Below, piece after piece: positions 38,786 through 63,084 of a stretch of 64,000 nt of DNA. Made by a program: the position numbers and the translations under genes. The notes beneath the pieces were generated by a model. It was not told where the DNA came from, made no database searches, and saw only the letters and a list, made by a program, of their open reading frames with translations. Numbering within the stretch: the first letter of the stretch is position 1; every line of letters begins with the position of its first letter. The stretch is from positions 2,342,136-2,406,135 of the forward strand of contig JAWPMR010000001.1 in NCBI GenBank assembly GCA_033344815.1. Direction: 5' to 3'. This DNA comes from Paracoccaceae bacterium (lineage in GTDB: Bacteria > Pseudomonadota > Alphaproteobacteria > Rhodobacterales > Rhodobacteraceae).

Positions 38786-40606
38786 TTAAAGTAAGCTGTC
38801 AGGCAGATCGCGCCGTCGATAGATCACACTCATGTTCCGCTCGACAGCCATTGCTTCTATACCCTGTTGCTTCAGTTCTTTTACAAGTTGATATGATCTG
38901 GTGGTCCACCGATAGCTCAAACGACCGACAGTCTCATACTCTGCGAGGAATCTGTTGATCTCATCGTATCGGAAAAGTTGGACCGACTTTCGTGTCCGGG
39001 GATGAAGAACCTTTTCGGTTGAAAGCAAACCTCTCGAGACAAGCCATGGGATGGTCAAGTAATTGATCCGCAGATGTTTGCGGAGTTGTTCACTGCTAAG
39101 TCCCGGAAGAGGTGGCCCTTCCAACTCGTCCAGCAATTCCTCTTTAGCAATACAAATTCCGCTGATCCCAGCGTGATCCGTCAGCCTACCAACCGTCTTG
39201 AGCCGCTTATCCAGTAGCAATTGTAACAAATTACTGATGCTTGTTTTACATGAACTCTGAACTGAACCAATAGCCAGCATACCAGGTGGGATATCCATCA
39301 GTGGTATTGCATTCTCACTTATGGATTTCACAAAACCATCAAGACTTGAAAGTGAGTAACGAGGCGCAGTTTCGGGAGCAAATGCGAACGGTTTGATGAG
39401 ATCGTTAGAAACCAGGCGCGAGAAAGTCGATGGGCACACCCCCAATTTACGTGCGGCGGGCTTTATGGTGACAGTGTTCCCGTAATCGTGGAGCCAAGCA
39501 TCCCAATCAGCAGATTTAACCCACAAGTTACTGGAGGGTCGCGGTAGGTGTTCGAGTGCCAATTTCTTCTGCGTGGCAGATAATATCTTCCGCATTCGAA
39601 GGAAAGTAACGTTCGCTTTCTTGGCGGCGCTTGAGATTGAATGTACTTTCCTTTGTTCTACTCGTTCTCCCAACACGACTTCGCCGACAGAACATGGGTA
39701 GTTGTTGACGACAAAATCGCGTACGGTTTCAATTAACGGAGTGCAAGTTGGCCGATGCTGGATTCGATCAAGGCACTGTGAAAAAGGGAAGAAGTCGGAG
39801 TAAAAGCCACCTTTCGAGTGTTCAGGTTGGAGGCCTCTTAGTCTCTCGCATAGGTGCTTCGGCCCGACAGACAGGATATCAAAGCCGCGAGAAGTCGCAT
39901 TGAGTAATACTTTCTCATCAACAATCGTCTGATCACGCATCGTTAAACCCAATGTCACAAGTCCGAGCTTCTCGCTGGCCCCAACGACTGTAGCTAAATC
40001 AAGTTTATCGAGCCAGCTTGACGACGATACTCCGCACTTCAAACGATTGATTATGTATTGCTCAAATCTGCCCGGTGAGAGTTTGTCCCCAGATGCTGAG
40101 GCAGACGTAATCAGTGCTGCGTTATCTCTGACCCGTCCGGCAAAGTCATGCTTGCAACGCCCCCGCTGAGGAGCTGGCAGGCATAACAGTGTTCTTCTAT
40201 GGACTGGACAAACTCTCATCCCCTCAATGTACCACCAGACAGGGGCACCTGACTGAAGGAAACCGTCACCATTTCGCCTGGCCCCAGCGATGCAGTCGGG
40301 GCAAAGATTGAGAGTATCAAAACGCATCAGCTTCGGGGCTATCCATTCGCCACCGACCCATTTCGAGGTTGCCGACCTTCCCAATCTGTACGTAGACCTT
40401 AGCAGCTTCTCGGAATCAACGCCCGCCACATCGCACAATGAGGCAACTGACGCCTGATCACCTATCCTAAAGCGGGCCCACGAAACTCCCATGTCGTGAA
40501 CGAAATCCTGCACAGTGGTGCAACCGTTTTTCTCAGCAAGCCGCGAGGCCCACGAGGTTGCCGGTTCACATTCCGAAGGATCGACAAGAAGGGCAAGGCC
40601 GCTCAT
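38786..40606 (-). CDS. tniQ: TniQ/TnsD-like target-selection protein
   Basis: A 606-residue protein with the TniQ layout: zinc-ligand pairs in TLNLCPDCIAGARRNGDGFL and GMRVCPVHRRTLLCLPAPQR (residues about 98-175) after WIAPKLMRFDT, then a long C-terminal region with repeated helix-turn-helix-like segments (KPAARKLGVCPSTFSRLVSN; RKHLRINYLTIPWLVSRGLL). TniQ proteins choose the target and recruit TnsC. At about 600 residues it is in the TnsD range rather than the short TniQ of CRISPR-associated elements, which suggests recognition of a fixed attachment site by its own DNA-binding domain. It overlaps tnsC by ATGA and is followed by a good terminator. Confidence 0.8.
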   Translation of the reverse strand: MSGLALLVDPSECEPATSWASRLAEKNGCTTVQDFVHDMGVSWARFRIGDQASVASLCDVAGVDSEKLLRSTYRLGRSATSKWVGGEWIAPKLMRFDTLNLCPDCIAGARRNGDGFLQSGAPVWWYIEGMRVCPVHRRTLLCLPAPQRGRCKHDFAGRVRDNAALITSASASGDKLSPGRFEQYIINRLKCGVSSSSWLDKLDLATVVGASEKLGLVTLGLTMRDQTIVDEKVLLNATSRGFDILSVGPKHLCERLRGLQPEHSKGGFYSDFFPFSQCLDRIQHRPTCTPLIETVRDFVVNNYPCSVGEVVLGERVEQRKVHSISSAAKKANVTFLRMRKILSATQKKLALEHLPRPSSNLWVKSADWDAWLHDYGNTVTIKPAARKLGVCPSTFSRLVSNDLIKPFAFAPETAPRYSLSSLDGFVKSISENAIPLMDIPPGMLAIGSVQSSCKTSISNLLQLLLDKRLKTVGRLTDHAGISGICIAKEELLDELEGPPLPGLSSEQLRKHLRINYLTIPWLVSRGLLSTEKVLHPRTRKSVQLFRYDEINRFLAEYETVGRLSYRWTTRSYQLVKELKQQGIEAMAVERNMSVIYRRRDLPDSLL

Positions 40607-41601
40607 TGCCTGGCCTCCAGTACAGCCGTACTCGATCCCGCGCCGTCAAGAAGTTTCCGCGCATCGATGCCGCGCCAGTCGTCAGACACGATTGGATTGC
40701 CGACGTGTGAGCAACCTGATCGACGCGCAAAAGCTCTGGCAAATGCATCCTTGTCGAGTTCATCGGCTGCTCTCGCGAGGGCATCTTCAATCGCCGCTAC
40801 GATGAGTTCGATGACCAGTCCCAGCTCTCGTGCAGCAGCATGGATTAGGCGTCTCGCGAATTCGCCACTGTTGAGGTGATCATGGTTCACACGAAGACCC
40901 GCAATTTCGGCGTAATGAGCAACGATTCCCCTAATTTCCTTGGCATGCGTCGTCATATGGATCGAAGGGAATTCTACCGGCGTCAGTCTCCGACTCAGCT
41001 GCGCGTCCATGTTGACGAGAGATTGCAGCTCCCTAGTCCCCGACAGAATCAGACCAGTTGGCCAATCGGATCGCTGCATGAGCGATTTTAGCGTATTGAC
41101 GACGGCCTGCGAGTCCCGATTGGCTCTTTCGTTATACAAGTGCTGGACTTCATCCAAGTGTAGGAACAGGACCTTTCGCTCGCTCAGGAGCGTCTGGACC
41201 TTAGACCAAATAATAGCAGCAGTTCGGTCGCGGTTCAGGGGGTAGCCAAGACTCGTGAGGCAGTCGTACCCGACTGATTTCAGTGTTGCGGGTGCCGGTA
41301 CTAGAAAACTAACCACATCGGCCCGTTCCACATCGGGCTGGGGCAAGTGCAGGTCCTGATGCTTGGCGAACAGTCGACGGATCGCTGTTGTCTTCCCTGA
41401 GCCTGAGGCCCCGATTACGACCAGGCCCCTCGCTTCGGAATGCAGACCTCGCTCGATCTCAGCGCGCCTTCGATAGAGTAGCAGGTCAAACTCTTCAGCA
41501 AGGTGCAGATACCGCTTGTGCTTGACGAAACGCGTACGCAGGTCGGCTGTGATGCGCCCGATTTCTCGGGCGCGTTTCAATTTTTGCTGGGCGTCAGTCA
41601 T
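40603..41601 (-). CDS. tnsC: TnsC/TniB-like AAA+ ATPase
   Basis: A 332-residue AAA+ regulator. Walker A GASGSGKTTAIRRLF (residues about 63-77), Walker B VLFLHLDEVQHLYNE, sensor segment GLILSGTRELQSL and an arginine-rich QLSRRLTPVEF are present. It assembles on target DNA, links TniQ to the transposase and controls its activation. The ATG at 41601 overlaps the tnsB stop by eight bases; a longer frame to 41667 would start well within tnsB. Length is typical of TniB and short TnsC proteins and shorter than Tn7 TnsC (about 550). Confidence 0.85.
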   Translation of the reverse strand: MTDAQQKLKRAREIGRITADLRTRFVKHKRYLHLAEEFDLLLYRRRAEIERGLHSEARGLVVIGASGSGKTTAIRRLFAKHQDLHLPQPDVERADVVSFLVPAPATLKSVGYDCLTSLGYPLNRDRTAAIIWSKVQTLLSERKVLFLHLDEVQHLYNERANRDSQAVVNTLKSLMQRSDWPTGLILSGTRELQSLVNMDAQLSRRLTPVEFPSIHMTTHAKEIRGIVAHYAEIAGLRVNHDHLNSGEFARRLIHAAARELGLVIELIVAAIEDALARAADELDKDAFARAFARRSGCSHVGNPIVSDDWRGIDARKLLDGAGSSTAVLEARQ

Positions 41602-43723
41602 CTTCGACCTCCCAACCCGAAGCACCACTATCTCCATCATCGCCGTCTTCCGACTCAGATGCGGCATCGGTATCGTCAGGTGACCACATAGAGGTTAGCG
41701 GCGACCCAAAAGGGTGGTTCTGCCGGTCGTCGTCCGTCTTTGCCTCAGAGCGCCAGGTCTTGTTTTGAAACAAGGTATCCTCAAGCCTATCGAGCGCCTT
41801 GGCGTCGACGCCTTCTGCGCCGGGCAGGAGTTGGTTTAGGCGGTCCTGCACGCTGTCACGAATACTGCGCAAGGCCTCTGCACGCAGTTCCTGTCCAAGC
41901 TTTGCCTCGGCCTGATGCTCTCGAGCAATCCGTGCAAACTCCGCCTTCCAGGCTTCGAGGGTCACACCATCGAAATCGGCATCACGCGCTGACGCATCGT
42001 GCCAGCGGCGATCCTTAAGATATGCGACACCGCCGATATCATCTGGATCGATCCGCACTCGGAATTTTCGCTGGGACGAATGCGCAAAGTGCTTCTGCAG
42101 ATCCTCGGACGTGTAGAAATTGCTGAAAAGCCGCAATCCATGCTTATCCAGTGTTCGCTCGACTTCAATGCCTGTCGCAACACGACGCGTCAGTCGGTCC
42201 GGCGGGCTGGGCACAAACCTCTCTCTTGCAAGCTCCTTCCACCGGCCTGCAGGGGTCTGTCCCTGAAGGCCAGAGTGCGGCGCATGATGGTAGAGGTCCA
42301 CGATCCATCTAATGATAATGCGAAGAAGATCCTCATCATCCAGAACGGCCCTCTTGTCCGCTTCATAGTCGCCGCGATCCGTAACATTGGAGAATGTCCT
42401 GCCGGGCAGAAGGGACGCCAATTTGGTCGCGAATGTCCCGAACGTACGCTCGACAGTTGCCCGGAGTTCCGGCACCCCGACAGGACCGAAGTGCAGATGA
42501 CCGCCAAGGTCGGTAACAGCGGTCTGGAACTCGGTCGACATGAACGCCGGGCCGGTGTCGCAGGAAACTGTACAAAGACCCCCGTAGTGATCCCACATTG
42601 CCTGCGCGCCGATTGCACGCGCAAACTTAGTTTTGTCCGAGACTGCCATCGCCAGTGTTCGAACCGCGTCATAGGCGGACGGATTTTTGGCAATCCGAAT
42701 GCCAACAATCATCCTGGTTGACACATCGACCGCGACACAAACCCATCGGCGGGTTTTCGGTAAGGCCGCGACGGCATGAGTTGGCAAATTGTCGATTGCT
42801 CCGAGGCGGGTCAGGAATGTTCGAACGTCGACTTTCCACTCATCCATTTCAATCCTCTGCATCGGGTAGAGCTTGGCCAAGCCTCCAGAAGATGACGATG
42901 CTAACGCGCGAGCTCGTTCCGCACCAAATCTTCCAGCATTAACAAAGAATGGATCTAAGCCGTTGATGTGCCGCAAGACTGTTGAATAGCTGAAGGACTT
43001 AATCTCAGGTCGACCTTCCAGTCGACGTTTAGCATTTTCGTCTCTCACGTCGTCTTCATGCCGTTCAAACACTTCCCTTTTGCTTGGGCGCTCCGGCGCC
43101 GCGTACTTGAGAACAGATCCTCGCAAGAATTCCTGAGAGTCGTAGTCATAGTGCAAAGGCCTCCGCGCAAAGCCTTTCTTTGGCATGAATGGCTGCATGG
43201 ATCGCCCAAATCTACGGTACTTTCGATGGAGTCGCAAAAGCGTTGAATTAGATGACAAAACATGGACTTCGGCCTTCGAACGCCCACGAGGTTTTGCCTT
43301 GAGGTTTTTTCTCTCAATGTCACGCTTGTTGATCAGTGCTTCTAACGTCTGACGATTTGCTGCGAAGCTCTCATGGCTGTAGGCAAGCTTTCCAGCGTCA
43401 TGTAGCTCATCGATAACCCCGAAGACCATTCTGAGCCAAGCAAGCTCCTCCTGATCCTCAATCGAGAGCGCTGATGTCATCGCCTCCGGTACTTTGGCTG
43501 CCTCGATCGGGGAAGCACTCTCGGCAAACCAGTTCTTTTCGTATCGCCATCCGGAACTCTTCCGCATCTTTTCGATGTCGTCATAGGTGAAGACCGAGCA
43601 GACATCCGTGCCATCGAGGTGACGAAAACGGACATATTCATCATTTTGACCATCTGGCTGAAAGAAAACTCCATTTAGAGTCATTCTGTCGAAGCGCGAC
43701 GTTTCAAAGCGGGGACCGGACAT
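41594..43723 (-). CDS. tnsB: TnsB/TniA-like DDE transposase
   Basis: A 709-residue Mu/Tn7-type transposase. The catalytic residues are visible: Asp in RRWVCVAVDVSTRMIVGIRI, Asp in CTVSCDTGPAFMSTEFQTAV and Glu in ELRATVERTFGTFATKLASL, with the Mu-transposase C-terminal barrel (HAPHSGLQGQTPAGRWKELA; LRLFSNFYTSEDLQKHF) behind. It cuts the 3-prime ends and joins them to the target, with TnsA cutting the 5-prime ends. The ATG at 43723 has GGGAGGT seven bases upstream, so it overlaps tnsA by 43 bases. The acidic tail rich in Asp, Glu and Ser may be the TnsC-binding part. Confidence 0.88.
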   Translation of the reverse strand: MSGPRFETSRFDRMTLNGVFFQPDGQNDEYVRFRHLDGTDVCSVFTYDDIEKMRKSSGWRYEKNWFAESASPIEAAKVPEAMTSALSIEDQEELAWLRMVFGVIDELHDAGKLAYSHESFAANRQTLEALINKRDIERKNLKAKPRGRSKAEVHVLSSNSTLLRLHRKYRRFGRSMQPFMPKKGFARRPLHYDYDSQEFLRGSVLKYAAPERPSKREVFERHEDDVRDENAKRRLEGRPEIKSFSYSTVLRHINGLDPFFVNAGRFGAERARALASSSSGGLAKLYPMQRIEMDEWKVDVRTFLTRLGAIDNLPTHAVAALPKTRRWVCVAVDVSTRMIVGIRIAKNPSAYDAVRTLAMAVSDKTKFARAIGAQAMWDHYGGLCTVSCDTGPAFMSTEFQTAVTDLGGHLHFGPVGVPELRATVERTFGTFATKLASLLPGRTFSNVTDRGDYEADKRAVLDDEDLLRIIIRWIVDLYHHAPHSGLQGQTPAGRWKELARERFVPSPPDRLTRRVATGIEVERTLDKHGLRLFSNFYTSEDLQKHFAHSSQRKFRVRIDPDDIGGVAYLKDRRWHDASARDADFDGVTLEAWKAEFARIAREHQAEAKLGQELRAEALRSIRDSVQDRLNQLLPGAEGVDAKALDRLEDTLFQNKTWRSEAKTDDDRQNHPFGSPLTSMWSPDDTDAASESEDGDDGDSGASGWEVEDD

Positions 43724-44463
43724 TGTGCCACCTCCCGGCTAACCATTGTTTTTGGTCCGATGAGCGCTTGCCTGTCCCAATGTAATAGGTTGTTGTACAT
43801 CGCGCGTACAACCGCCGGGTATCCGCGCTCAGCCAAACCAGAAACCTTGACGAGATCGGAAACTGTCATGTTGCTTTTGAGAGCTGAAATTATCTCAGCA
43901 AGTTGATCGTCTGCGTCAGGATCGATCTCCCGTTGGCAGTTCATGAATTGCTCAGCATTTTCGATCTGGGTGTGGGTAAAGTTTCGCTCGGTAAAGAGAA
44001 AAACCTCATCAGCGTAGTCAGGCACCAGTCGCGATGCCGCATCGCTTATCTTTTCAATGACCTTTGGCTTTTTTGCTTGTTGCGAAGTCTTGACTTCAAT
44101 TGCGATACGGCGGCCATCACGCTTGGTGACCAAGTAATCAAAGGTGTATCGGCGCGTCCTGCCAGCGGCATCAATATAGCGAAGCGTGAAAGGCTGCTCC
44201 ACAATATCGACAGTTTCTACTCCCGCTAGTGCCATGAGGGCGAACGAGCGCTCGAGTGAGCTTTCGTATCCGATGCGCGTAAGGCGCTCAGCCCCACGGA
44301 TACGGGCTACGAGTACGCCGCGAGCACTGATAGCTGACCGCGACCGGATCTTGCGGCTTCCGCGAAGTTTCTGCGGGAGCTGAATTGGAACTGATGCCGT
44401 GGAAAATTCGAAAACCGGGCCAGTCGGCCGAGTGGGTTGGGTATCTTTAGCAGAGATGGTCAT
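43681..44463 (-). CDS. tnsA: TnsA-like endonuclease
   Basis: A 260-residue restriction-endonuclease-fold protein. YESSLERSFALMALAGVETV supplies an active-site Glu, RRYTFDYLVTKRDGRRIAIE the Asp and VKTSQQAKKPKVIEKI the Lys (residues about 65-145), matching the TnsA catalytic E-D-K set. The C-terminal helix-turn-helix region contains MTVSDLVKVSGLAERGYPAV. It makes 5-prime-strand cuts so that transposition is true cut-and-paste. The start at 44463 has AAGGAG seven bases upstream; an earlier start at 44481 has none. It is the first gene of the block. Confidence 0.85.
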   Translation of the reverse strand: MTISAKDTQPTRPTGPVFEFSTASVPIQLPQKLRGSRKIRSRSAISARGVLVARIRGAERLTRIGYESSLERSFALMALAGVETVDIVEQPFTLRYIDAAGRTRRYTFDYLVTKRDGRRIAIEVKTSQQAKKPKVIEKISDAASRLVPDYADEVFLFTERNFTHTQIENAEQFMNCQREIDPDADDQLAEIISALKSNMTVSDLVKVSGLAERGYPAVVRAMYNNLLHWDRQALIGPKTMVSREVAQCPVPALKRRASTE

Positions 44464-44585
44464 GTTGTTCTCCTTGATCATGAATTGGACACGCCGATTG
44501 CTTCAAGGCTCGCAGCGCGCTTGACTTTTGGTGTGGTTCGGTGGATCAAGGAGATAAGAAACTGGGCTCCTTGCCCTCCTAAGGT

Positions 44586-60608: not shown

Positions 60609-60821
60609 TTACTGCGCCTCCACATTGCCGTTGAGTTCGTGCGGATGCGTGTATGGCGGCAACGTCCAGCCGCGCTTCAAAAGCTCTTCCCTGATTTGCG
60701 CTCTGGCCCACCAGCCACCTTCGACATCTTTGCTGTATCGCGCATGCAAGCCGCATTCGATCATTTGTGCGATGATGCTGTCGTCTAGATCGCTTTTCGC
60801 GCTACCGCCAGATTGGGTCAT
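60609..60821 (-). CDS. Small hypothetical protein
   Basis: A 70-residue protein, MTQSGGSAKSDLDDSIIAQM, IECGLHARYSKDVEGGWWAR, AQIREELLKRGWTLPPYTHP. GGAG lies seven bases before ATG 60821 and the preceding metallophosphoesterase stop is directly adjacent, so translation is probably coupled. The longer frame to 61013 runs through that gene. No family recognised; composition suggests a small soluble helical protein. Confidence 0.6.
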   Translation of the reverse strand: MTQSGGSAKSDLDDSIIAQMIECGLHARYSKDVEGGWWARAQIREELLKRGWTLPPYTHPHELNGNVEAQ

Positions 60822-60822
60822 C

Positions 60823-61383
60823 TCAAAGCTCCGCGTTGTGTTCGACGTCTTGCCAGTGCTTGTTCTCGGGCAATGTCTTTGAGCGTTGTTCGATGTCTCT
60901 GATTGTGATTGGGACATAACCCCAGACATCAATTCCGACATTGACGGCGTTCCGGCTACCCATCCACTGGTCGTGGACATGGCCGAACAGGTGCAGCGCG
61001 CCTTTTCGGGCACGGTGCCATGTGATCATCGGGTAGTGGCAAAGCACCGAATGAGGGCCTTTGCCATCCGCCACTTCGGCAAGATGCGTCACGCTGGTCC
61101 AAGGCAGCTGCTGGGTCGCTTCGCCATCGTGGTTGCCGATAACGAGGTGCTGTTCCGCGCCCGGCAGTTTTGCGAAAAGCTTCGTCAACCAGTTGCGATC
61201 CTTTGCCTTTTGACCGAAGGCGAAGTCGCCAACAATCCAGAGCGCGTCCTTCGGGCCGACCTTCGCGCTGAGGTTCTCAATCAGCACCGCATCCATGTGG
61301 CTCGCCGATTGGAATGGGCGGCCACAGTGTTTGATGATGTTCTCGTGGCCGAAATGGGTATCGGCTGTATACCAATGCATCAT
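60823..61383 (-). CDS. Metallophosphoesterase
   Basis: A 186-residue calcineurin-like phosphoesterase with the full metal-site series: TADTHFGHENII (D-x-H), LWIVGDFAFGQ (GD), VIGNHDGE (GNHD), VLCHYPMITWH (H) and HLFGHVHDQW (GHxH). Members of this small group act on phosphodiesters, often in phage and mobile-element contexts. It lies between the membrane protein and the two small genes. The start could be 61383 or 61380. Confidence 0.87.
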   Translation of the reverse strand: MMHWYTADTHFGHENIIKHCGRPFQSASHMDAVLIENLSAKVGPKDALWIVGDFAFGQKAKDRNWLTKLFAKLPGAEQHLVIGNHDGEATQQLPWTSVTHLAEVADGKGPHSVLCHYPMITWHRARKGALHLFGHVHDQWMGSRNAVNVGIDVWGYVPITIRDIEQRSKTLPENKHWQDVEHNAEL

Positions 61384-61387
61384 TGTT

Positions 61388-61975
61388 TTACTCTGTTTGC
61401 CGGTTGCCCATCAGGACAGTTGGTGCCTTTTGACCGAGAACACGGTCGATCTCAGCTTTCAGGCGCGCGGTGCGCTCTTCGTAGCGTTTAGACCAAATGG
61501 TAACACCCGCAAAGATACAGCCGAGGAGCAAGATAGCATAGGTTTGGAGGCCAGTTGCCGAGAAGGCGCTATCAGCGAGACCGATGGCATCCAACATCAT
61601 GAACCATGGGAACAGTCCGGGTAGGGCCAAAAGAAGACCGAACCCAAACGTGCTGATGATGGTCACGCCGGGCGTCGTCTTGACGGTCAGTTCGGCAGCA
61701 TCGTGGATCTTCTGCGTCGTTACGTTTGCAAAGGCGATGAGCTTGCCGGAGGTTCGGTCACTGACGACAGCAACTTCGTGGCCGGGCTGCGCAGCTTCAA
61801 ACAGCTCGCCCTGAAACCGGTGCTCATGTCCGGCGCTGTCCCGCAGCCACAGCTCGCACGTACTGTTGATCTTGCCATAGCCGGTAGTCTGGTTGACGCG
61901 CACCGAGTCCATTTGCTTTTTGTAGACCGTTACGATGCCGCGCACGACATCAAGTGACGCCGTTGCAGCGGTCAT
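61388..61975 (-). CDS. Membrane protein of unknown function
   Basis: A 195-residue protein. The N-terminal soluble part (residues about 1-95) includes a beta-rich segment, ELWLRDSAGHEHRFQGELFE and GHEVAVVSDRTSGKLIAFAN. Two transmembrane segments follow (GVTIISTFGFGLLLALPGLF; LQTYAILLLGCIFAGVTIWS), then a charged, coiled-coil-like tail ERTARLKAEIDRVL. I do not recognise the family. It overlaps the ParA-like gene by four bases and the metallophosphoesterase follows four bases on. Coupling to a ParA-like ATPase suggests a membrane anchor or envelope-located partner, which is inference. Confidence 0.7.
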   Translation of the reverse strand: MTAATASLDVVRGIVTVYKKQMDSVRVNQTTGYGKINSTCELWLRDSAGHEHRFQGELFEAAQPGHEVAVVSDRTSGKLIAFANVTTQKIHDAAELTVKTTPGVTIISTFGFGLLLALPGLFPWFMMLDAIGLADSAFSATGLQTYAILLLGCIFAGVTIWSKRYEERTARLKAEIDRVLGQKAPTVLMGNRQTE

Positions 61976-62685
61976 GATGCCATGCTCTCTCGTTCAGATA
62001 TCAATTCTAGAACTTCATCGGCCAGTTGGATGCACCGCCGCTGCCAGTGATCTTTCGACGTACTCTGACTTTTGTTGCGATTGTGATGTGGAATAAATCC
62101 CAAGAAGTTCGATTCGAAGGGCAGCTCTGTTGTCAGTATTGACAGCGGCGAGAACGCGGCGCGGACTTTCTGTGGCTGCTCGGCACCTGCCACCAAACAT
62201 CTGAGCCTGTCTTGTCGGATTAAGAACTCATCTGGCAGACGGTCCCTAATCTCTCTGGCATCTGAAGCATTCCGCGCAGGCGCTATCAGCAGGGAGGATC
62301 TGTCCGCCGCCTCAAAAACAGACGCCGTTTGGTGAGCCGGGGTATCAACAATGGCATAGGCCCAATTCTCTCGCCAAAGCTGATCCAGCACGACTTTTAG
62401 ATAGGGAGCGGTTGTTGCTCGAATATATTGAAGCTCCCCACCGCAAAATGAGCCATTTTGCGCCGTCTCGGCCCATCGACCAAGGACGCTATGATCCGGC
62501 ACAGCGCCGTGGCCGCGTCCGGTTATCACAAGTTGTTCCTCAAGCGGAACTGCATATCCCGCATCAATAAGAGCAACGCGCTGGCCGATTGATACGAGTC
62601 CGACAGCCAGCGCAGCCGCCGTGGTTGTCCGACCCGCCCCACCCTTGAAGCCGAGGCATGAAATGGTGTGCAAGTTTGGCTCCAT
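61972..62685 (-). CDS. ParA/VirC1-like ATPase with altered Walker A
   Basis: A 237-residue P-loop protein. The deviant Walker A reads FKGGAGRTTTAAALAVGL (residues 13-30): the signature Lys14 is kept, but the P-loop Lys that contacts phosphate is Arg19. ALIDAGYAVPL replaces the usual D-x-D switch region, and YAIVDTPAHQTASVFEAAD is the Walker B-like switch II. The size and FKGGAG recall VirC1 and other ParA-type proteins of conjugative or partition systems. The start at 62685 has GAGGAG nine bases upstream; a GTG at 62730 is the alternative. It is the first gene of the operon, divergent from the controller-like regulator across a large palindrome. Confidence 0.8.
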   Translation of the reverse strand: MEPNLHTISCLGFKGGAGRTTTAAALAVGLVSIGQRVALIDAGYAVPLEEQLVITGRGHGAVPDHSVLGRWAETAQNGSFCGGELQYIRATTAPYLKVVLDQLWRENWAYAIVDTPAHQTASVFEAADRSSLLIAPARNASDAREIRDRLPDEFLIRQDRLRCLVAGAEQPQKVRAAFSPLSILTTELPFESNFLGFIPHHNRNKSQSTSKDHWQRRCIQLADEVLELISERESMAS

Positions 62686-62752
62686 TTGAAGTTGCTCCTC
62701 TACCTCAAAACGCGCAGCACGCTCCCGCACCCACGCTTCTGACCCACTTTTT

Positions 62753-62788
62753 CTAATGACTATAGTAAACTGTTACTATAGTCATTAG
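62753..62788. promoter_or_regulatory. 36-bp C-box-like palindromic operator
   Basis: CTAATGACTATAGTAA (62753-62768) and TTACTATAGTCATTAG (62773-62788) are perfect inverted arms around ACTG. Each arm also contains the self-complementary ACTATAGT, so two adjacent operators for a dimeric repressor are apparent. This is the geometry of C-protein boxes in restriction-modification systems, which consist of paired GACT...AGTC repeats. It lies between the ParA-like and the XRE genes, 32 bases before the latter's ATG. Confidence 0.8.
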
Positions 62789-62820
62789 CGTTATCGAAGC
62801 CGTTCCCTGACAGAGTCAGG

Positions 62821-63084
62821 ATGGAACGGAAAAACCAAATTTTGATGGCGGCTTACGCGCGGACGCTTCGCGAAAAGCGGAAAGCCGCGAACCTTTCACA
62901 GGAGGAACTCGCGTTCCGCACAGATCTTTCCATGAGCTACATCTCATTTTTGGAAACATGTCGAAGACAACCAACCCTCACAGTGATGGATGCGATCTGC
63001 CGAGAGCTGGGCATCTCGCTTGCCGAGTTCGTAAGTGATGTCGAGCGCGCCGCCGTAACGCACAAAGCAATAAAGGGGTCGTAG
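62821..63084 (+). CDS. Small XRE-family regulator resembling R-M controller (C) proteins
   Basis: An 87-residue one-domain helix-turn-helix protein: AYARTLREKRKAANLSQEEL, AFRTDLSMSYISFLETCRRQ, then PTLTVMDAICRELGISLAEF. Size, single-domain build and sequence pattern (LSQEELA, three-residue turn, YIS-E-x-x-R-x-PT) fit controller proteins, which activate then repress their own transcription. The 36-bp operator directly upstream supports self-regulation. No methyltransferase or endonuclease gene lies beside it within the window; the divergent neighbour is the ParA-like operon. The start is ATG at 62821. Confidence 0.8.
   Translation: MERKNQILMAAYARTLREKRKAANLSQEELAFRTDLSMSYISFLETCRRQPTLTVMDAICRELGISLAEFVSDVERAAVTHKAIKGS

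What the first reader, a model, noticed from the sequence alone, without database searches (positions are those of the whole stretch)
62685..63084. Orphan controller-protein switch with a C-box-like operator driving a ParA-like accessory operon
A C-protein-like 87-residue regulator and a perfect 16-4-16 bp palindrome, each arm holding ACTATAGT, face a leftward operon of a ParA-like ATPase, a membrane protein, a metallophosphoesterase and two small proteins. Such operators and regulators normally time restriction-modification genes, yet no such gene is present. The module could be a new mobile-element maintenance, defence or stability system under an R-M style delay circuit. The operator and ORF arrangement is visible; the C-protein likeness rests on family knowledge; the function of the operon is inference.
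Basis: partly seen in the sequence, partly recalled or inferred. Interest (0 to 1): 0.82.

Follow-up and report, generated by a model that had tools for sequence, protein, structure and literature searches.

The report
Orphan C-type switch on mobile operon
A small regulator and its paired DNA switch, of the kind that normally times restriction enzymes, sit instead in front of an uncharacterised gene cluster (an ATPase, a membrane protein and a phosphoesterase) in marine bacteria, and related clusters carry the same or a different small switch, which makes a new use of a known circuit testable.

Summary
A perfect 16-4-16 palindrome (62753-62788) separates an 87-aa XRE regulator (62821-63084) from a leftward operon of ParA-like ATPase, two-helix membrane protein, metallophosphoesterase (MPE) and two small proteins. 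It is two copies of a GAC-TATA-GTC dyad, the published optimal C.Esp1396I core. In 394 family genomes the operator (spacer 6-12) occurs in 7, once each, always directly upstream of a homologue of this regulator, down to 48% identity. Both dyads are unchanged in four operon-bearing genomes although ParA and membrane proteins fall to about 50% identity. The nearest DNA methyltransferase of three tested families is over 650 kb away: the controller is an orphan. MPE homologues occur in 39 of 394 genomes; 16 of 36 MPE ORFs examined from that scan have a small divergent HTH regulator, of several classes. Best reading: a C-type autoregulatory switch on a mobile accessory module, sometimes beside Tn7-like or defence genes. 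The regulator-operator pairing is well supported; binding, a delay, and the operon's function (defence, exclusion or maintenance) are inference. No known system was identified.

The parts
62753..62788 (.). operator: dyads TGACTATAGTAA (62757-62768) and TTACTATAGTCA (62773-62784), 16 bp apart start to start, inside a perfect 16-4-16 palindrome
   Evidence: GAC-TATA-GTC core described for C.Esp1396I
62821..63084 (+). 87-aa XRE/C-type regulator, recognition helix region LSMSYISFLE
   Evidence: 80-94% identical over its length in G229, G011 and G006, with the same dyads
62806..62820 (+). small inverted repeat CCTGAC-AGA-GTCAGG directly before the start codon of the regulator; possible translational hairpin
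   Evidence: consensus fold of 9 loci is weak (-3.06 kcal/mol; 2 of 9 pairs with double changes; 7 of 9 pairs broken or gapped in at least one row)
61972..62730 (-). ParA/MinD-like ATPase with KGGAGRT P-loop; likely start ATG at 62685 rather than GTG 62730
   Evidence: homologues in L016, L019 and L020 start near residue 16, though L015 keeps the upstream extension
61388..61975 (-). membrane protein: beta-rich N-terminal part plus two hydrophobic helices
   Evidence: model of low confidence, pLDDT 58.6
60823..61383 (-). metallophosphoesterase with DTH8, GD52, GNHD83, CHYP115, GHVH134 (motif set recalled)
   Evidence: Pfam Metallophos 16.6 bits, below its cut-off of 21.5; phrog_547 7.9e-47; 1xm7 2.3e-11
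60609..60821 (-). 70-aa protein, no family
   Evidence: found in L005/L018 (one locus) and L015
60380..60607 (-). 75-aa basic protein, no family; follows MPE in L005/L018, L015, L016, L017 and on a Phaeobacter plasmid

Best explanation
It is an orphan controller-protein switch. Dimers of the 87-aa regulator bind the two TGACTATAGTCA-like dyads between the divergent genes, probably cooperatively as a tetramer, and so control both their own gene and the leftward operon of ParA-like ATPase, two-helix membrane protein, metallophosphoesterase and two small proteins. The operon is one form of a mobile accessory module of this bacterial family, seen beside Tn7-like genes, integrative elements, plasmids and defence genes. 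Shown here by sequence: the operator, its pairing with the regulator, the linkage to the operon, purifying selection, and related modules under different regulators. Inferred: binding, cooperativity, direction of control, a delay or burst after entry into a naive cell, and a role in defence, exclusion or persistence of the carrying element.
For: Operator in 7 of 394 family genomes with spacer 6-12, one site each, each just upstream of a regulator homologue. Nine loci aligned: TGACTATAGT and ACTATAGTCA are invariant while the surroundings differ. Of 15 regulator homologues seen through, the 9 with S[MTV]SY in the recognition helix all have this operator; the 3 with S[AT]RF share GAACAACTGTTC; the one with SMRY shares a doubled ATACTTCAT with two further S[IM]RY regulators. 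Between the window/G229 pair and the G011/G006 pair both dyads are the same although ParA and membrane proteins are 49-54% identical; dN/dS 0.05-0.06 for the regulator and 0.05-0.10 for MPE where dS could be estimated. The order regulator-ParA-membrane protein-MPE also in L055 with a regulator 43% identical. 16 of 36 MPE ORFs (130 aa or more) examined from the family scan have a divergent HTH regulator of at most 115 aa within 4 kb. Plasmid copy annotated HTH, AAA ATPase, hypothetical protein, metallophosphoesterase, near a plasmid recombination gene.
Against: No binding or expression data. The operator is nearly symmetric, unlike the unequal left and right sites of Esp1396I, so an activator-then-repressor circuit does not follow from the sequence. 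The promoter scan found 2 sites against 1.8 expected by chance. 20 of the 36 MPE ORFs have no recognised divergent HTH (one contig, L090, ends there). Three operator loci (G248, G261, G365) face a different membrane-protein gene with no MPE nearby, and its similarity to the window's membrane protein is not significant. Within the close pairs the regulator's dN/dS is higher (0.30 window-G229, 0.15 G011-G006), and the low cross-pair values rest on near-saturated dS of 1.4-2.0. Tns or TniQ hits were found in only 9 of 47 stretches. MPE relatives occur in 1750 of 50,697 phage records whose neighbours I did not examine. PADLOC HTH_VI scores slightly better than Control_protein.
Confidence: 0.66

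Rival explanations
1. A plain divergent autorepressor: the regulator simply represses both genes, like many phage or toxin-antitoxin XRE proteins, with no activation or timing role. (Overlaps with the best explanation in binding and in control of both genes.)
For: The operator is a symmetric double dyad between two divergent genes; the regulator also matches Y4mF/HipB-like antitoxin, RstR and phage repressor models at E 1e-7 to 1e-10, below curated cut-offs where given.
Against: The dyads match the C.Esp1396I core and 3 of the 7 named molecules' groups among PDB hits are R-M controllers; but nothing here separates activation from repression.
Confidence: 0.35
2. Leftover of a lost restriction-modification system: the regulator once timed an R-M pair and its linkage to the ParA-MPE operon is incidental.
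For: In L. roseus (L015) the regulator is beside a C5 methylase, Vsr and an HNH enzyme; in L016 and L017 the corresponding place holds another control-protein-like gene and an HNH enzyme, and in L005/L018 the frameshifted remains of that gene with the HNH enzyme.
Against: In L015 the only C-box found is the one at the regulator, none at the methylase; four genomes keep regulator, operator and operon together; a distant homologue (43%) keeps the same gene order (L055).
Confidence: 0.15
3. Toxin-antitoxin or addiction module: the membrane protein or the phosphoesterase is toxic and the regulator restrains it.
For: Three other operator loci face a 207-214-aa protein with one or two predicted hydrophobic helices; weak Holin-X similarity of the window membrane protein (E 0.017, below cut-off).
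Against: In seven related loci a ~290-aa family stands in place of the membrane protein; the four of these tested have no predicted membrane helix; no TA model reached its cut-off.
Confidence: 0.2
4. Partition system: ParA-like ATPase with the palindrome as centromere and the regulator as ParB-like adaptor.
For: ParA-family P-loop; palindrome beside the parA-like gene.
Against: No ParB match among the operon proteins; the P-loop is KGGAGRT with arginine where the classical motif has lysine (motif recalled); a single site in the genome; the operator persists with other genes.
Confidence: 0.07

Closest known systems
R-M controller proteins C.Esp1396I, C.AhdI, C.BclI
   Same: Small XRE protein; operator of two dyads with GAC/GTC boxes around TATA (passages of PMC3758141 seen)
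   Different: No methyltransferase of three families within 650 kb; recognition helix MSY where C.BclI has RTY; near-symmetric operator between divergent genes; partner genes are ParA-like, membrane and MPE
RtaC/RtbC Xre regulators of type I-F3 CRISPR-associated Tn7-like transposons
   Same: Xre-family regulators of a mobile element that shows zygotic induction in a new cell (passage of PMC11406308)
   Different: The operon here is not a transposition or CRISPR operon; identity to RtaC/RtbC was not tested
QseC of Mesorhizobium integrative elements
   Same: Second PDB sequence hit (9xz9, E 1.1e-4), an XRE controller; its element and role are recalled, the related papers seen only as a listing
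   Different: Different partner genes (recalled); operators not compared
phrog_547 phosphoesterase family
   Same: MPE residues 1-178 of 186 match, E 7.9e-47; structural relative 1xm7, a hypothetical protein
   Different: Function unknown; the NCBIfam PdeM model scores 31.7 against a cut-off of 150

Membership tests
R-M controller (C) protein | short XRE helix-turn-helix protein similar to known C proteins | tested here: met
   HTH_3 1.5e-14; PADLOC Control_protein 1.2e-12 but HTH_VI 1.9e-13; C.BclI 2e-4, C.AhdI 4.3e-4, C.Esp1396I forms 4.7e-4 to 9.1e-4, behind a phage immunity repressor 4e-5 and QseC 1.1e-4
R-M controller (C) protein | operator of two pseudo-dyads GAC-TATA-GTC upstream of its own gene | tested here: met
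   motif description
R-M controller (C) protein | linked methyltransferase and restriction endonuclease under its control | tested here: not met
   nearest PF00145/PF01555/PF02384 match over 650 kb away (endonucleases not searched separately); in L. roseus R-M-like genes are adjacent but carry no second C-box
R-M controller (C) protein | cooperative dimer/tetramer binding, activation then repression | not testable with these tools
   needs binding and reporter assays
R-M controller (C) protein | C-protein fold | tested here: inconclusive
   five-helix model, pLDDT 62.7; first Foldseek hits C.BclI, ClgR and C.Esp1396I, none with E <= 0.001
ParABS partition system | ParB partner and parS sites | tested here: not met
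   no ParB match among the operon proteins in Pfam; one operator copy in the genome
PdeM ligase-associated DNA damage endonuclease | score above the curated cut-off | tested here: not met
   31.7 bits against 150
Known anti-phage defence system (PADLOC) | convincing match of the operon proteins to a defence model | tested here: not met
   only partial matches for ParA (8.8e-6) and MPE (0.0098); none for the membrane and two small proteins
Tn7-like transposon cargo | lies between transposon ends | tested here: inconclusive
   tns/TniQ hits in 9 of 47 stretches; no convincing terminal repeats in the four gaps searched

The most novel reading that the evidence does not exclude
A previously undescribed mobile module (ParA-like ATPase, envelope protein, metallophosphoesterase, small basic protein) often headed by a small divergent C/XRE switch, whose class has been exchanged repeatedly so that co-resident modules belong to different operator incompatibility groups, as described for R-M C proteins; it would be a defence or exclusion system that needs timed expression on entry.
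Probability: 0.3. Interest if true: 0.8.

Novelty: new variant of a known kind. Interest (0 to 1): 0.6.

Why it matters
Controller proteins are known as the timers of type II restriction systems. A conserved C-box and C-type regulator in front of a non-restriction operon, with other regulators and operators in the same place in related operons, suggests that the timing circuit is a general part of mobile modules whose products must not appear at the wrong moment. It gives a specific operator to test and a route to the function of an operon most of whose proteins have no informative family.

Tried and rejected
Searching for terminal repeats between the module and tns genes gave nothing convincing. 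The empty-site test with the neighbouring beta-keto acid cleavage enzyme gene showed the right flank conserved in the six genus relatives fetched (of 19 genomes with a match), with no trace of the module or of the left flank there, so no insertion site was defined. AlphaFold of the membrane protein was too poor (pLDDT 58.6) for a fold search, so none was made. The fold search of the regulator was not significant. The promoter scan was at chance level. The operator with spacer 8 was not found in viral contigs. The regulator gave only the own genome among 289 class genomes at E 1e-14; in plasmids 191 records match at below 60% identity, one of which was opened and has an AAA ATPase gene nearby but no MPE. 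The membrane protein has one plasmid match. Partition, plain R-M remnant and PdeM were considered and set aside for the reasons given.

Literature searches: (open-access library). None of the listings shows a C-box-controlled ParA-membrane-MPE operon; one search found no mention of metallophosphoesterase, Xre or controller in the main text of the Tn7-like cargo survey PMC8649781. The systematic C-protein survey of 2009 (recalled, and cited in the passages) is not held, so orphan C proteins of this kind may be in print there. Papers were seen as passages (PMC11406308, PMC6237814, PMC8649781, PMC3758141, PMC12707154, PMC3874152) or listings; none was read whole.

Full report
Observation. The finding holds at its coordinates. 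The 16-4-16 palindrome at 62753-62788 is perfect and is the only inverted repeat in the window with arms of 12 or more and a gap of at most 4; 20 Markov resamples gave none with arms of 16 and one with arms of 12. Its core has one match in the window and none in 100 shuffles, and one site in the 5.08-Mb genome with up to 3 mismatches. To its right is the 87-aa regulator (62821-63084). To its left runs an operon on the minus strand: ParA-like ATPase, membrane protein, metallophosphoesterase (MPE), a 70-aa and a 75-aa protein. The ParA-like gene probably starts at ATG 62685, because homologues in L016, L019 and L020 begin near there, though L015 keeps the upstream extension.

The regulator is C-like. 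It has an XRE domain (HTH_3, 1.5e-14), matches PADLOC control-protein models (1.2e-12) but also a model called HTH_VI slightly better (1.9e-13). Its 7 PDB sequence hits are a phage immunity repressor, QseC, C.BclI, C.AhdI and three entries of an 82-aa controller that includes 3clc, C.Esp1396I. The fold model is of low confidence and its first hits, C.BclI, ClgR and C.Esp1396I, are not significant.

The operator is C-box-like. Passages of PMC3758141 describe the C.Esp1396I site as GAC and GTC separated by TATA in the optimal site, with two dimer sites side by side. Here the two dyads read TGACTATAGTAA and TTACTATAGTCA; in genome G121 both are the full TGACTATAGTCA. The start-to-start distance of the dyads is 16 to 18 bp in the nine loci (counted).

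The regulator and operator travel together. In 394 genomes of the family the operator with spacer 8 occurs in 4 and with spacer 6-12 in 7: G000, G121, G229, G248, G261, G279, G365. Each has one site, just upstream of a regulator homologue. The regulator is found in 13 of 394 at E 1e-15: these seven, and G031, G104, G335, G339, G343, G411, which lack this operator. Three of these six, with S[AT]RF in the recognition helix (G104, G411, G339), share a GAACAACTGTTC motif, also seen upstream of the G335 homologue, whose frame carries a stop; G343 (SMRY) has a doubled ATACTTCAT, shared with two further S[IM]RY regulators (L089, L099); the G031 homologue is broken. The nine S[MTV]SY regulators seen (the seven, and G011 and G006) all have TGACTATAGT...ACTATAGTCA. 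The counts are small and the classes follow descent in part (tree), so this supports but does not prove direct recognition.

Linkage to the operon. The order regulator, ParA, membrane protein, MPE with this operator is present in the window genome, G229 (Litoreibacter roseus, L015/L056), G011 (L019) and G006 (L020). Between the window/G229 pair and the G011/G006 pair the ParA and membrane proteins are 49-54% identical, MPE 72-75% and the regulator 79-87%, while both dyads are the same (the 4-base centre differs at one base). dN/dS for the regulator is 0.05-0.06 in these comparisons but rests on dS of 1.4-2.0, and is 0.30 and 0.15 within the two close pairs; for ParA and MPE several dS values could not be estimated. 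A distant copy of the whole order, with a regulator 43% identical, is in G343 (L055).

The module is more general and its head varies. MPE homologues (E 1e-30) occur in 39 of 394 family genomes, 53 matches. Of the 53, 14 were not fetched; of the 39 in fetched stretches 3 are broken into short ORFs and 36 have an ORF of 130 aa or more. Of these 36, 16 have a divergent HTH regulator of at most 115 aa within 4 kb and 20 do not (the HTH search was seeded from the window's regulator at E 1e-5, so other HTH types can be missed). With nine further MPE ORFs that came in through the ParA and membrane-protein queries the count is 20 of 45, one place being listed twice (L018 = L021). The regulators have recognition helices SxSY, S[IM]RY, DRTY, NRTY, xQSF/Y and SQQY (SQQY in L092 and the plasmid copy), and members of one class share stretches upstream of the gene (and, for the plasmid; read by eye, some pairs being close relatives). 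The middle genes also change: ParA-like plus two-helix membrane protein in some, a ~290-aa family in others (seven mutually similar sequences; six scanned against Pfam, no match better than E 0.08). A Phaeobacter plasmid carries HTH, AAA ATPase, hypothetical protein, metallophosphoesterase and a 63% identical relative of the 75-aa protein, near a plasmid recombination gene. Conversely, three operator loci (G248, G261, G365) face a 207-214-aa protein with one or two hydrophobic helices and no MPE next to it; its similarity to the window's membrane protein is not significant. The association is therefore modular.

Surroundings. The window has TnsA-TnsB-TnsC-TniQ-like genes at 38786-44481, about 16 kb from the operon. 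Tns or TniQ hits lie within about 3 kb of the module in L015, L016, L017, L020 and L045; over all, 9 of 47 stretches have such a hit (Pfam for L016 and L020 proteins). Defence-like genes neighbour the module in L015 (AbiEi/AbiEii, C5 methylase, Vsr, type IV-like HNH) and L019 (PbeA, PbeC); other stretches were not scanned in this way except the HNH and TIR-like genes of L016. The second MPE-membrane module of the window genome (L025) has another regulator class and lies about 5 kb from an N6/N4 methyltransferase gene at 762837. The right-flank gene (beta-keto acid cleavage enzyme) is conserved in six genus relatives whose loci show no module. Whether the module lies inside a Tn7-like element is not settled.

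Mechanism. Shown by sequence: operator, pairing, linkage, selection. From established knowledge of C proteins (passages of PMC6237814 and PMC12707154): C proteins bind and activate their own promoter, then at higher dose fill a second site and repress, which helps to delay the nuclease after entry. Inference: that the present regulator does this, and that it controls the leftward operon as well as itself. The symmetric operator and unlocated promoters leave simple autorepression open. PMC3874152 (passages) describes C-protein incompatibility groups. In three genomes I saw two regulator-headed modules, and the two regulators differ in class each time: G000 (SMSY and PQSY), G384 (HQSF and NRTY), G040 (HQSF and PPSF, the second with a broken MPE). 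With so many classes this may be chance; it was not tested.

Function of the operon. MPE has the five metal-site motifs (the motif set is recalled) and matches phrog_547. ParA has KGGAGRT. The membrane protein model suggests a beta-rich part and two helices but is poor. No PADLOC model matches the operon proteins well. A mobile accessory role in defence, exclusion or maintenance is the natural guess from some of the neighbours, at about 0.3 for defence or exclusion.

Novelty. The parts are of known kinds; a C-type switch on this operon was not seen in the listings of eight searches of an open-access library. One key survey of C proteins is not held. I rate it a new variant of a known kind.

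Noticed in passing
window 38786-44481: Tn7-like TnsA-TnsB-TnsC-TniQ gene set on the minus strand; relatives of it abut the MPE module in L016, L017 and L020.
   Followed up: partly
L049 7382-9666, L050 9586-10551, L052 around 9751: Regulator homologues with a shared CTAGAACAACTGTTCGTGG upstream motif, head to head with DUF262/GmrSD-like proteins (name recalled, not scanned); in L049 a 1093-aa Cas9-like protein (name recalled) lies nearby. A second possible C-type switch on a defence gene.
   Followed up: partly
L047 8454-9399 (G279): Two C-type regulators in tandem, each with its own upstream motif, the first divergent to a 124-aa gene and MPE.
   Followed up: no
L025 8744-10327 (own genome, G000:C1:747000-766900): Second membrane protein-MPE module with a different regulator and a 12-1-12 palindrome, followed by large restriction-like genes.
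   Followed up: partly
L019 11694-12626 and L023 6178-7017; L003 2648-3481: In two genus relatives the module lies next to a dapF-like gene (name recalled), suggesting an insertion hot spot; the own genome's copy of that gene has no module in the fetched stretch.
   Followed up: no
window 62806-62820 and 8 related loci: Inverted repeat touching the start codon of the regulator, with some compensating changes; consensus energy weak.
   Followed up: partly
L089, L099, L045, L092, L093, L101, L117: A ~290-aa protein family, without Pfam match in the six scanned, takes the place of the membrane protein in MPE operons.
   Followed up: partly
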